A stretch of 64,000 nt of DNA, taken from the NCBI RefSeq assembly GCF_011745145.1, contig NZ_CP050191.1, forward strand, positions 2,284,984-2,348,983, given 5' to 3'. A program made the position numbers and the translations under genes. Below, piece by piece: positions 54,094-57,904 of the stretch; positions within the stretch are counted from its first letter, which is position 1, and every line of letters starts with the position of its first letter. The stretch is from Mycobacterium sp. DL440 (lineage in GTDB: Bacteria; Actinomycetota; Actinomycetes; Mycobacteriales; Mycobacteriaceae). The notes beneath the pieces are model-generated. The model searched no databases, had not been told where the DNA came from, and was given only the letters and a program-made list of their open reading frames with translations.

Positions 54094-55368
54094 ATGGTCG
54101 TCGAGTCAGGTGGTGCATCCGCGGAGCCGACGAAGGCCCGGCATATCCGGTTGACGTCCCACAGTGCTGTCGCGGGCACCCCGACCATCCAGTGGGCCGC
54201 ACCGAATGCTGCCGAGCGCGGTCCGGTGATCGGTACCACCACCACACGTGCGCACCGCAACGTGATCGGCACCCACAGCGGGTCCTACAGCGTGTACCGG
54301 GCTTTGGCCGTCGCCGCGGGCGCCCTCTCACCGGAGCACCGCGCCGATCTCACCAATACCTCGCCCACCGATGTGATCGGGCCGTACACCCAGTGGGGCC
54401 AATCCGAGACGATCGTCAGCCTGGATCCGTGGGGCGCGATGGTCGCTGACGCGTTCGCCGCCGAACTGGCTGCCGGCTATGACATCCGGCCGACCATCGC
54501 GGTGACCAAGGCCCATGTGATGGTGCCGGAGGTCGCCACCGCCATCGCCGCCGGCCGGCTGCATCCGGACGGCCACATACTCCTGGAAAACGGTACGGCC
54601 CTGGTGACGAAGGCGGCCATCGAGCCGGTGTGGTACCTGCCCGGGGTCGCCGCCAGGTTCGGCTGCACCGAGACCGCGCTGCGCCGGGTGCTGTTCGAGG
54701 AGACCGGGGGCATGTACCCCGAACTCGTCACCCGCAGCGACCTGGAGGTGTTCCTGCCGCCGATCGGCGGGCAGACGGTGTACATCTTCGGCGCACCATC
54801 CGATTTGGCCGATCCGACCGTGGAACTGACCGCCCGGGTACACGACGAGTGCAACGGTTCGGACGTCTTCGGCTCCGACATCTGCACGTGCCGGCCCTAT
54901 CTCGCACACGCGATCGAGGAATGCATCGCCGGTGCCCAGCGCGGCGGGGTCGGCCTGGTCGCCTATTCACGCAAGGAGGGCCGCGCACTCGGAGAGGTGA
55001 CGAAATTCCTGGTCTACAACGCGCGCAAGCGCCAACACGGCGGCGACACCGCCGATCAGTACTTCGCCCGCACCGAATGCGTGGCGGGCGTGCAGGATAT
55101 GCGGTTCCAAGAGCTCATGCCCGACGTTCTGCACTGGCTGGGGATCCGCAAGATCCACCGCCTGGTGTCGATGAGCAACATGAAATACGACGCCATCACC
55201 GGATCCGGAATCGAGGTCGGCGAGCGGGTCAACATCCCCGACGACCTGATCCCGGCCGACGCCCGGGTGGAGATCGATGCCAAGATGGCCGCCGGCTACT
55301 TCACCCCCGGGCCGGTACCGGGCGCCGACGAACTGAAGATCGCCAAGGGCCGCGGACTCACGCCATGA
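54094..55368 (+). CDS. urc1: GTP-cyclohydrolase-II-like protein of the Urc1 type (uracil catabolism)
   Basis: The 424-residue protein carries a GTP cyclohydrolase II domain in its second half. The three zinc cysteines Cys253, Cys264 and Cys266 (in NGSDVFGSDICTCRPYL) keep the exact spacing of Cys54/65/67 of E. coli RibA. They are followed by SRKEGRALGEVTKFLVYNAR and VLHWLGIRKIHRLVSMSNMK. The N-terminal 230 residues are an extension that riboflavin enzymes lack and that Urc1 proteins have. No rib gene is nearby; instead DUF1688 and upp follow in overlapping order. In yeast Urc1 acts on a uracil-derived ribonucleotide, not on GTP. Confidence 0.88.
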   Translation: MVVESGGASAEPTKARHIRLTSHSAVAGTPTIQWAAPNAAERGPVIGTTTTRAHRNVIGTHSGSYSVYRALAVAAGALSPEHRADLTNTSPTDVIGPYTQWGQSETIVSLDPWGAMVADAFAAELAAGYDIRPTIAVTKAHVMVPEVATAIAAGRLHPDGHILLENGTALVTKAAIEPVWYLPGVAARFGCTETALRRVLFEETGGMYPELVTRSDLEVFLPPIGGQTVYIFGAPSDLADPTVELTARVHDECNGSDVFGSDICTCRPYLAHAIEECIAGAQRGGVGLVAYSRKEGRALGEVTKFLVYNARKRQHGGDTADQYFARTECVAGVQDMRFQELMPDVLHWLGIRKIHRLVSMSNMKYDAITGSGIEVGERVNIPDDLIPADARVEIDAKMAAGYFTPGPVPGADELKIAKGRGLTP

Positions 55369-56582
55369 CCACCACCCTGGACGGCTCAGCCGCTGTCGCC
55401 ACGCTGCGCACGACCACCGCGATCCGCGAACGGGCGCAACACCTTCTGCAGCGCGCCCGGGTGGGCAACTCCGCCTGGTTCCTGGTGGATGACGATGCCC
55501 TGGACCGGGCAGCCGCCGAGGTCGCGGACGTCACCCGCACCCGCTACCCGACACTCGCCATCCCATACCACAGCAGGTGGCGCCATTTCGAGGCCGGAGG
55601 TGTGGACCGCCGGGCCGAGTTGGATTCGCACACAGCCAATGTGGATACCGTGACCCGCGCTCGATCAATGATCGACCTGGCCGTGGTCAGCGTGTTGCTC
55701 GACGCCGGAGCCGGAACCGATTGGCATTACACCGAACCCGGCACCGGCCTTGTGCTGACCCGCTCCGAGGGGCTGGGGGTGGCGAGCTGGCACGCCTTCT
55801 GTAGCGGATTGTTCTCGAGCGATCCCGCCGATCCGCTGCGGGCCGACGCCGCCGCGTTGGGCCGCCTCGGCGTCGAAAGCCTGGCTGCGGCCTTTCAGGT
55901 GCGTGCAGGAAATCCGTTGGTCGGTCTCGCCGGTCGGGTGCAGTTGCTGCGTCGCCTCGGCGCGCAACTGGCTGCTCGCCCTGCCGTGTTCGGCCCGCAC
56001 GGCCGGCCCGCGGGGCTGTTCGACACAGCGACCGGTCCGACCATCGCGGCCCACGACCTGCTCTCGACGCTGTTGGACACCTTGTCGGGAGTATGGCTCA
56101 CCGACAACACCATCGGCGGTCAACCGCTCGGCGACTGCTGGCGGCATCAGGCGGCCCCGGGGCCCGGTCTGTCGCGCGGCTGGATGCCGTTTCACAAACT
56201 GTCCCAGTGGCTGACCTACTCCCTGCTGGAACCGTTCGAACGGGCGGGTGTCGTGGTCACCGATCTGGATGCCCTCACCGGCCTGCCCGAATACCGAAAC
56301 GGCGGTCTGCTGCTCGACACCGGCGTGCTGCGGTTACGTGATGCCGCACTCGCCGAGAAGGAGTGGGCAGTGGGCGACGAGCTCGTCGTCGAATGGCGGG
56401 CACTGACCGTCGCGCTGCTCGATGAACTGGCGCCGCTGATCCGCGGTCGTCTCGACGCCCCGCAGTTGCCGCTGGCCTGTGTGCTGGAGGGCGGGACGTG
56501 GGCCACCGGGCGGGCACTCGCCGCGCGCCTGCGCGACGGCCGCCCTCCGCTGTCCATCGTCAGCGACGGCACGGTCTTCTAG
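55365..56582 (+). CDS. urc4: DUF1688 protein of the Urc4 type (uracil catabolism)
   Basis: The ATG at 55365 overlaps the preceding stop by four bases (ATGA). The 405-residue product has the conserved features of DUF1688/Urc4: IPYHSRWRHFEAGGVDRRAE, MIDLAVVSVLLDAGAGTDWH followed by YTEPGTGLVLTRSEGLGVAS, then MPFHKLSQWLTYSLLEPFER and EYRNGGLLLDTGVLRLRD. The family is found next to URC1-type genes and is required for the URC uracil route in the yeast Lachancea kluyveri. The reaction it catalyses is not settled. It is followed 9 bases later by upp. Confidence 0.88.
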   Translation: MTTTLDGSAAVATLRTTTAIRERAQHLLQRARVGNSAWFLVDDDALDRAAAEVADVTRTRYPTLAIPYHSRWRHFEAGGVDRRAELDSHTANVDTVTRARSMIDLAVVSVLLDAGAGTDWHYTEPGTGLVLTRSEGLGVASWHAFCSGLFSSDPADPLRADAAALGRLGVESLAAAFQVRAGNPLVGLAGRVQLLRRLGAQLAARPAVFGPHGRPAGLFDTATGPTIAAHDLLSTLLDTLSGVWLTDNTIGGQPLGDCWRHQAAPGPGLSRGWMPFHKLSQWLTYSLLEPFERAGVVVTDLDALTGLPEYRNGGLLLDTGVLRLRDAALAEKEWAVGDELVVEWRALTVALLDELAPLIRGRLDAPQLPLACVLEGGTWATGRALAARLRDGRPPLSIVSDGTVF

Positions 56583-56591
56583 GAGGACACG

Positions 56592-57221
56592 ATGGGCAAC
56601 CTGCATGTCATCGACCATCCGCTGGTGCAGCACAAGCTCACCCTGATGCGGCAGAAGGACTTGTCCACCAAAGGATTTCGCCAGTTGCTCATCGAGATCT
56701 CGATGCTGATGAGTTATGAGGTGCTGCGCGACATCCCGGTGCACGACATCGACATCGAGACGCCCCTGGAATCCACGACAGGAGCCGTGATCGACGGCAA
56801 AAAACTCGTGTTCGTGTCCATTCTGCGGGCGGGCAGCGGCATCCTGGACGGCATGCTCAGTGTGATGCCGAATGCCCGGGTCGGCCATATCGGCCTGTAC
56901 CGCGATCCGAAGACCCGAGTGGCCGTGGAGTATTACTTCAAGCTTCCGAGCGATCTGGACGAACGGGACGTAGTTGTCGTCGATCCGATGCTGGCCACCG
57001 GCAATTCAGCCGTCGCGGCCATCGACCGCATCAAGGAATACGGGCCCCGATCCATCAAATTCGTCTGCCTGCTGACATGTCCGGAAGGCGTCGAGGCCAT
57101 GCAACAGGCGCATCCGGACGTACCCATCTACGCCGCCGCACTGGATCGGGAACTCGACGAGCAGGGCTACATCGTCCCTGGCGTCGGCGATGCGGGTGAT
57201 CGCATCTTCGGAACCAAGTGA
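56592..57221 (+). CDS. upp: Uracil phosphoribosyltransferase
   Basis: AGGAGG lies directly before the ATG at 56592. The 209-residue protein is a complete Upp: NLHVIDHPLVQHKLTLMRQK at the start, VSILRAGSGILDGMLSVMPN, the PRPP loop VVVDPMLATGNSAVAAIDRI and the C-terminal YIVPGVGDAGDRIFGTK uracil-binding region. It converts uracil and PRPP to UMP. In most mycobacteria upp is a salvage gene elsewhere; here it is third in the URC-type operon, where conversion of uracil to UMP is the first step of breakdown. Confidence 0.96.
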   Translation: MGNLHVIDHPLVQHKLTLMRQKDLSTKGFRQLLIEISMLMSYEVLRDIPVHDIDIETPLESTTGAVIDGKKLVFVSILRAGSGILDGMLSVMPNARVGHIGLYRDPKTRVAVEYYFKLPSDLDERDVVVVDPMLATGNSAVAAIDRIKEYGPRSIKFVCLLTCPEGVEAMQQAHPDVPIYAAALDRELDEQGYIVPGVGDAGDRIFGTK

Positions 57222-57904
57222 ACACACATCGCTGGGGCCTCGGCGCCTTCGTCATCGTCGAGGCCGTCTATCTGCTCACCTCGGCAGCGTTCGGTCTGTT
57301 CGCACCCCCGGGCCCGCCGCCGGCCGGGTTGATCACGCTGGCGATCGGGGTGCCCACGCTCGTCGCCGCGACCCTGGCCGTCGCCATCGCGAAATGGCGC
57401 GGCAATGGTGCCCGCATCGACTTTCGATGGCAGTGGTCCTGGCGTGCAGTCGGTCTCGGGTTGGCATTCGGCATCGGCGGACTGTTCGTCACACTGCCGG
57501 CTGCGTTGCTGTACCAGTCGATCGTCGGACCCGACGCGACCTCAGCCGTCGGCGGGGTCTACGAGGGCGTTCGGACCGGGTGGCCGCTGGCGGTGGCGGT
57601 CCTGCTCCTCGTCGCGTTCATCGCACCGATCTGCGAAGAGGTGGTGTATCGCGGACTGCTGTGGGGTGCGCTCGAGCAACGGTGGGGGCGCATCGTCGCG
57701 GTGATCGTGTCCACCCTCGTATTTGCCTTCGCCCACCTGGAACCCGAGCGGGCTCCGCTCCTGCTGGTGGTTGCCATCCCAATTGCATTGGCGCGGCTGT
57801 ACTCCGGAAGTTTGTGGGGCGGCATCATCGCCCACCAGGTGACCAACCTGCTGCCGGGTCTCGTCATGATGTTCGGACTGCTGGGCATGCTGCCTGCCCG
57901 CTGA
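57218..57904 (+). CDS. CPBP-family intramembrane metalloprotease
   Basis: The GTG at 57218 overlaps the upp stop by four bases. The 228-residue protein has six to eight membrane segments and the CPBP (Abi/Rce1-like) motifs ICEEVVYRGLLWGALEQRW (EExxxR), VFAFAHLE and LWGGIIAHQVTNLLPGL, which supply the glutamates and histidines of the metal site. Coupling to upp suggests it belongs to the operon, though its role in uracil metabolism is not obvious; it could be a passenger or process a membrane partner such as a transporter. Confidence 0.9.
   Translation: MNTHRWGLGAFVIVEAVYLLTSAAFGLFAPPGPPPAGLITLAIGVPTLVAATLAVAIAKWRGNGARIDFRWQWSWRAVGLGLAFGIGGLFVTLPAALLYQSIVGPDATSAVGGVYEGVRTGWPLAVAVLLLVAFIAPICEEVVYRGLLWGALEQRWGRIVAVIVSTLVFAFAHLEPERAPLLLVVAIPIALARLYSGSLWGGIIAHQVTNLLPGLVMMFGLLGMLPAR

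What the first reader, a model, noticed from the sequence alone, without database searches (positions are those of the whole stretch)
54094..57904. URC-type uracil-breakdown operon in a mycobacterium
A GTP-cyclohydrolase-II-like protein with a 230-residue N-terminal extension, a DUF1688 protein and uracil phosphoribosyltransferase are encoded with 4-base overlaps or a 9-base gap. These are the three signature genes (URC1, URC4, UPRT) of the route by which Lachancea yeasts use uracil as nitrogen source. A CPBP membrane protease is coupled by another 4-base overlap and is not part of the known route. The set implies that this organism breaks down uracil by way of UMP, not by the reductive or Rut pathways.
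Basis: partly seen in the sequence, partly recalled or inferred. Interest (0 to 1): 0.8.

Follow-up and report, generated by a model that had tools for sequence, protein, structure and literature searches.

The report
Bacterial URC uracil-breakdown operon
A mycobacterium carries the known three-gene URC set for breaking down uracil to urea, and comparison of folds suggests that its least understood enzyme (URC4) cuts the sugar off the opened uracil ring in the way a queuosine-salvage enzyme does.

The parts
54077..54086 (+). Shine-Dalgarno-like GAGGAAGGAG before URC1
   Evidence: read from the sequence
54094..55368 (+). URC1-type (UTP) cyclohydrolase, 424 aa
   Evidence: Pfam GTP_CH_N + GTP_cyclohydro2; NCBIfam PRK07198 792.4 bits, cut-off 403; 82% identity to 7eev
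54142..54702 (+). GTP_CH_N domain (residues 17-203), the 'N-terminal extension'
54823..55230 (+). GTP cyclohydrolase II-like catalytic domain (residues 244-379), with Cys253/264/266 at the RibA zinc-ligand positions (role recalled)
   Evidence: the three Cys invariant in 116 of 116 loci
55365..56582 (+). URC4 / DUF1688, 405 aa; predicted Qng1-like N-glycosidase
   Evidence: Pfam 478.3 bits; AF2 pLDDT 93.4; fold match to Qng1; hhalign E 5.3e-9
56196..56198 (+). codon of K278, equivalent of Qng1 K199
   Evidence: invariant in 116 of 116 loci
56289..56291 (+). codon of E309, equivalent of Qng1 D231
   Evidence: invariant in 116 of 116 loci
56487..56501 (+). codons of E375 to W379; E375 and W379 are the equivalents of Qng1 D298 and W302
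   Evidence: three MAFFT modes agree; E375 is Glu in 48 and Gln in 12 of 60 rows, W379 is Trp in 60 of 60
56581..56586 (+). AGGAGG before UPRT, overlapping the URC4 stop codon
   Evidence: read from the sequence
56592..57221 (+). uracil phosphoribosyltransferase (URC6 counterpart), 209 aa
   Evidence: TIGR01091 269.5 bits, cut-off 208.35; 41% identical to the genome's other Upp
57218..57904 (+). CPBP (Rce1-like) membrane protease; lineage-specific neighbour, not part of the conserved set
   Evidence: 67.2 bits; found in 4 of 81 other loci with more than 900 bases downstream of UPRT

Best explanation
This is a bacterial URC operon for using uracil as a nitrogen source. UPRT converts uracil and PRPP to UMP (established for the family). 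Housekeeping kinases raise it to UTP (inferred). The URC1 enzyme, a zinc cyclohydrolase of the GTP-cyclohydrolase-II fold, hydrolyses the pyrimidine ring of the nucleotide (substrate UTP taken from the title of published work; not tested here), giving a three-carbon fragment (3-hydroxypropionate in yeast) and N-ribosylurea, free or phosphorylated. URC4 (DUF1688), a distant homologue of the queuosine nucleosidase Qng1, then hydrolyses the N-glycosidic bond of ribosylurea or its phosphate and frees urea and the sugar (inferred from fold and conserved active-site residues). Urease, encoded elsewhere in the genome, turns urea into ammonia. The CPBP protease is a bystander in a few related species.
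Against: No activity or growth data for this organism. The literature used on ribosylurea is a passage in a metabolic-model paper, not the primary work. The UTP assignment rests on titles only, and the tie of 7eev/7ej3 to that paper is inference. URC4 does not reach the Q_salvage gathering score (10.9 against 25 bits). Both Qng1 acids are changed, Asp to Glu (E309; E375, the latter Gln in 12 of 60 rows), and a His near the Qng1 C terminus that is invariant in 8 of 8 Q_salvage rows is lost, so substrate and even catalysis could differ. If URC1 opens UTP, a step from triphosphate to the form that URC4 takes may be missing. A dihydropyrimidinase cluster offers a possible second route.
Confidence: 0.8

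Rival explanations
1. The first gene is a second riboflavin GTP cyclohydrolase II and the operon has nothing to do with uracil.
For: Databases name the family 'GTP cyclohydrolase II', and it shares the GTP_cyclohydro2 domain and the Cys triad with RibA-type enzymes.
Against: 38-60 bits to RibA-type models against 792 to PRK07198; separate RibBA at G000:C1:1921655; constant company of DUF1688 and UPRT; 82% identity to 7eev.
Confidence: 0.03
2. URC4 is not a hydrolase of ribosylurea but acts with URC1, for example as its partner or in a second ring-opening step, on a Qng1-like scaffold that has lost glycosidase activity.
For: Asp to Glu at both Qng1 acid positions, Gln at position 375 in 12 of 60 rows, loss of a His conserved in Q_salvage; URC1 and URC4 adjacent in the 112 complete loci.
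Confidence: 0.15
3. The organism degrades uracil mainly by the reductive pathway, and the URC operon serves another end such as limiting uridine nucleotide pools.
For: Dihydropyrimidinase over cut-off with a hydantoinase/carbamoylase and NCS2 permease in one cluster; PMC4617892 states that M. smegmatis harbours a reductive pathway induced by nitrogen limitation, with not all genes identified (passages).
Against: No DHO_dh protein over cut-off besides PyrD; the cluster could equally serve hydantoins or allantoin-type ureides; URC company in other bacteria includes cytosine deaminase homologues, a RutR-like regulator and ABC importers.
Confidence: 0.1
4. CPBP is a working part of the operon, for instance processing a uracil transporter or sensor.
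For: GTGA overlap with UPRT; present behind UPRT in the window and in L035, L036, L037 and L055, 5 of the 7 rows of the window's clade.
Against: No match to it in 77 of 81 loci with more than 900 bases downstream of UPRT, including L040 and L044 of the same clade.
Confidence: 0.07

Closest known systems
URC (uracil catabolism) pathway of Lachancea kluyveri, URC1/URC4/URC6
   Same: Same three protein families: URC1 cyclohydrolase, DUF1688/URC4, UPRT.
   Different: Here one tight operon; a urease is at hand where the yeast uses urea amidolyase; urea amidolyase was not searched for here, nor the yeast regulator.
UTP cyclohydrolase, PDB 7eev/7ej3 (molecule name 'GTP cyclohydrolase II')
   Same: 82% identity over 417 aligned columns to 7eev, all three Cys kept.
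   Different: No difference seen; substrate not tested here; the name UTP cyclohydrolase for these entries is inference.
Bacterial URC1-URC4-upp operons (Gordonia, Azospirillum, Pseudoroseomonas, Cupriavidus, Variovorax, Rhodococcus)
   Same: Same genes, order and strand.
   Different: The window adds CPBP; many proteobacterial loci add a BMP-type ABC importer (25 of 84), some a cytosine deaminase homologue (12 of 84) or RutR-like regulator (2 of 84).
Qng1 / DUF2419 queuosine-5'-monophosphate nucleosidase (7uk3, 7ugk, 7ulc), nearest to URC4
   Different: 15-22% identity; below Q_salvage cut-off; Asp to Glu at two acids; C-terminal His lost; substrate inferred to be ribosylurea (phosphate), not queuosine.
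S. pombe urg1-urg2-urg3 cluster
   Same: GTP cyclohydrolase II family, UPRT-like and DUF1688 genes clustered and uracil-induced (PMC2174524).
   Different: Eukaryotic; gene order not compared.

Membership tests
URC pathway operon | URC1: GTP_CH_N + GTP_cyclohydro2 protein distinct from RibA | tested here: met
URC pathway operon | URC4: DUF1688 protein, full length | tested here: met
   478.3 bits, profile positions 2-420 of 420
URC pathway operon | UPRT encoded with them | tested here: met
   own copy only 41% identical to the genome's other Upp
URC pathway operon | a way to use urea | tested here: met
   urease alpha 177 bits at G000:C1:2623593; ureA-B-C-F-G-D-like ORFs in order in L145 (read by eye except the alpha subunit)
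URC pathway operon | uracil as sole nitrogen source, with urea and 3-hydroxypropionate as products | not testable with these tools
   needs growth and metabolite tests
UTP cyclohydrolase (URC1) | close relationship to the solved enzyme and the Cys triad | tested here: met
   82% identity to 7eev; Cys253/264/266 invariant in 116 of 116 loci
UTP cyclohydrolase (URC1) | opens UTP | not testable with these tools
   title of the cited paper only
RibA GTP cyclohydrolase II | score over RibA model cut-offs | tested here: not met
   48.4 against 205.85 bits (TIGR00505), 59.6 against 148 (PRK00393)
Rut pathway | RutA over cut-off in the genome | tested here: not met
   best 132.3 against 498.3 bits
Reductive pyrimidine pathway | dihydropyrimidine dehydrogenase (PreA/DPD) | tested here: not met
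   by proxy of the DHO_dh domain: one match over cut-off, identified as PyrD; the next step, dihydropyrimidinase, is present
Qng1 / Q_salvage (for URC4) | Pfam Q_salvage gathering score (25 bits) | tested here: not met
   10.9 bits; 15 of 60 relatives match weakly, best E 0.0061
Qng1-like superfamily (for URC4) | shared whole-chain fold | tested here: met
Qng1-like superfamily (for URC4) | active-site positions K199, D231, D298, W302 | tested here: inconclusive
   K kept, D231 is Glu, D298 is Glu (Gln in 12 of 60), W kept
Qng1-like superfamily (for URC4) | N-glycosidase activity | not testable with these tools
   needs enzyme assay

The most novel reading that the evidence does not exclude
URC4/DUF1688, listed in Pfam as of unknown function, is a divergent branch of the Qng1 (DUF2419) nucleosidases that keeps the Lys and has Glu (at one place also Gln) where Qng1 has its two Asp, and cuts N-ribosylurea or its phosphate. 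It supplies the least defined chemistry of the URC pathway in bacteria and fungi and shows that a queuosine-salvage fold was used for bulk pyrimidine nitrogen recovery.
Probability: 0.72. Interest if true: 0.65.

Novelty: new member of a known kind. Interest (0 to 1): 0.45.

Why it matters
The operon itself is a known kind. Its value is that the least understood of the three enzymes, URC4, gets a concrete and testable chemistry (N-glycosidase on ribosylurea or its phosphate) that fits the yeast assignment of ribosylurea to urea. It also warns that 'GTP cyclohydrolase II' for URC1 and, in some entries, 'uracil phosphoribosyltransferase' for URC4 are misleading database names.

Tried and rejected
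Rejected: RibA paralogue; CPBP as a member; Rut pathway. No solved structure of DUF1688 was found by sequence, single (E up to 1) or profile (E up to 10). Paper searches: 7EEV/7EJ3 gave 0 papers; DUF1688 gave 4 and Urc4p/urg3/ribosyl urea/URC4 gave 10, whose listings showed nothing on a Qng1 link; 'duf1688' does not occur in the main text of PMC11592518 or PMC11130926. The Qng1 structure paper (10.1093/nar/gkac1231) is not held, so its mechanism is not quoted. A GlnR box upstream was only looked for by eye and nothing is claimed. Not tested: fate of the three-carbon fragment, urea carboxylase/amidolyase, gain and loss of the operon at this locus.
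Full report
What is there. The window lies at G000:C1:2284984-2348983 of a 6,381,854-base genome. Four + strand genes are read at 54094-55368, 55365-56582, 56592-57221 and 57218-57904, with an ATGA overlap, a 9-base gap with AGGAGG over the preceding stop, and a GTGA overlap. Pfam gives GTP_CH_N + GTP_cyclohydro2, DUF1688, UPRTase and Rce1-like/CPBP. The nearest named URC4 relatives (88% identity) are from Mycolicibacterium peregrinum, so the organism is most likely a Mycolicibacterium.

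Gene 1 is URC1 and not RibA. It scores 792.4 bits against PRK07198 (cut-off 403) and only 38-60 bits against six RibA or RibBA models. Its best solved relatives are 7eev and 7ej3, both named 'GTP cyclohydrolase II'; I counted 342 identities in 417 aligned columns with 7eev (82%). The Cys at 253, 264 and 266 (zinc ligands in RibA, recalled) are invariant in 116 of 116 loci (L001-L114, L117, L118). The genome has another protein at C1:1921655 that matches RibBA and RibA models.

Substrate. A 2025 paper (PMC12507026, passages seen) cites for the URC pathway Andersen et al. 2008 and Zhang et al. [quoted passage not shown] I did not see that paper; that 7eev/7ej3 belong to it is inference.

The operon is widespread and known. 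With 30 loci from unnamed Mycobacteriaceae genomes and 4 plasmid loci this makes 114; URC1, URC4 and UPRT are colinear on one strand in 112 of the 112 loci that hold all three; L028 and L088 show no UPRT, and their held DNA ends soon after URC4. These are best matches, so the count says little about remote members. Two remote actinobacterial copies came (L117, L118); L118 was read by eye and has the same three-gene order. DUF1688 is in 76 of 401 Mycobacteriaceae genomes and 4 of 296 Actinomycetota genomes, own included, so distribution is patchy. A tree of 85 URC4 rows puts the window with L035-L037 (Mycolicibacterium) and places three betaproteobacterial rows (L042, L048, L050) inside an otherwise actinobacterial set at 100/97 support, which suggests transfer between phyla but does not prove it. 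[quoted passage not shown] pombe urg genes are clustered and induced by uracil.

CPBP is a bystander. A match to it is found in 4 of 81 loci with more than 900 bases downstream of UPRT (L035, L036, L037, L055); with the window that is 5 of 7 rows of one clade. The 30 short loci L001-L030 do not reach far enough and are not counted.

Metabolic context. The genome has a second Upp (C1:588718; 41% identical to the operon's), whereas the operon's UPRT is 57-62% identical to those of the proteobacterial plasmid URC loci L032-L034. It has a urease operon, no RutA over cut-off (best 132.3 against 498.3 bits) and no DHO_dh protein over cut-off other than PyrD. It does have a dihydropyrimidinase over cut-off with a hydantoinase/carbamoylase-family hydrolase and an NCS2 permease, so part of a reductive or hydantoin route exists. 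In Cupriavidus (L034) the trio is followed by a RutR-like regulator (193 bits, below its cut-off of 368) and a cytosine deaminase (822 bits, over cut-off). Over the 84 loci L031-L114, homologues of that deaminase lie in 12, of that regulator in 2, and of the Azospirillum BMP-family importer protein in 25, by tblastn at E 1e-10. The BMP protein's best model is a putative B6 importer far below cut-off (93.7 against 400 bits), so its cargo is open.

Limits. Nothing was assayed. Whether URC4 takes ribosylurea or a phosphate is open: a His near the C terminus that is invariant in 8 of 8 Q_salvage rows is not kept, and if URC1 works on UTP a step from the triphosphate may be missing. The Qng1 link was not found in print, which cover open-licence PMC text only and mostly listings or passages; other papers could contain it.

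Verdict. The system is a known kind (URC operon) in a mycobacterium; the new element is the predicted chemistry of URC4.

Noticed in passing
52464-53585 (-): Cytochrome P450 ORF of 373 aa whose similarity to P450 models stops at about residue 324-335; the C-terminal part may be in another frame, so the gene may be broken or misassembled.
   Followed up: no
G000:C1:79233-86451 (L143 7234-14452): Cluster of a 478-aa protein without an NCBIfam match (PucR-like by eye), dihydropyrimidinase, hydantoinase/carbamoylase-type hydrolase, NCS2 permease and aldehyde dehydrogenase: a hydantoin or dihydropyrimidine route without a recognised dihydropyrimidine dehydrogenase.
   Followed up: partly
L042, L048, L050 against mycobacterial loci: Betaproteobacterial URC4 copies nested among actinobacterial ones in the tree, a possible transfer between phyla.
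   Followed up: partly
P0006, P0010, P0039, P0042, P0052: Some public entries name DUF1688/URC4 proteins 'uracil phosphoribosyltransferase', probably carried over from the neighbour gene.
   Followed up: no
M. smegmatis msmeg_3473 (literature): A uracil phosphoribosyltransferase gene raised 2.55-fold under nitrogen limitation (PMC4617892); whether it lies in a URC operon was not checked.
   Followed up: no
L037 and L064: Two strains titled M. frederiksbergense carry URC4 copies in well separated parts of the tree, from misnaming or separate acquisition.
   Followed up: no
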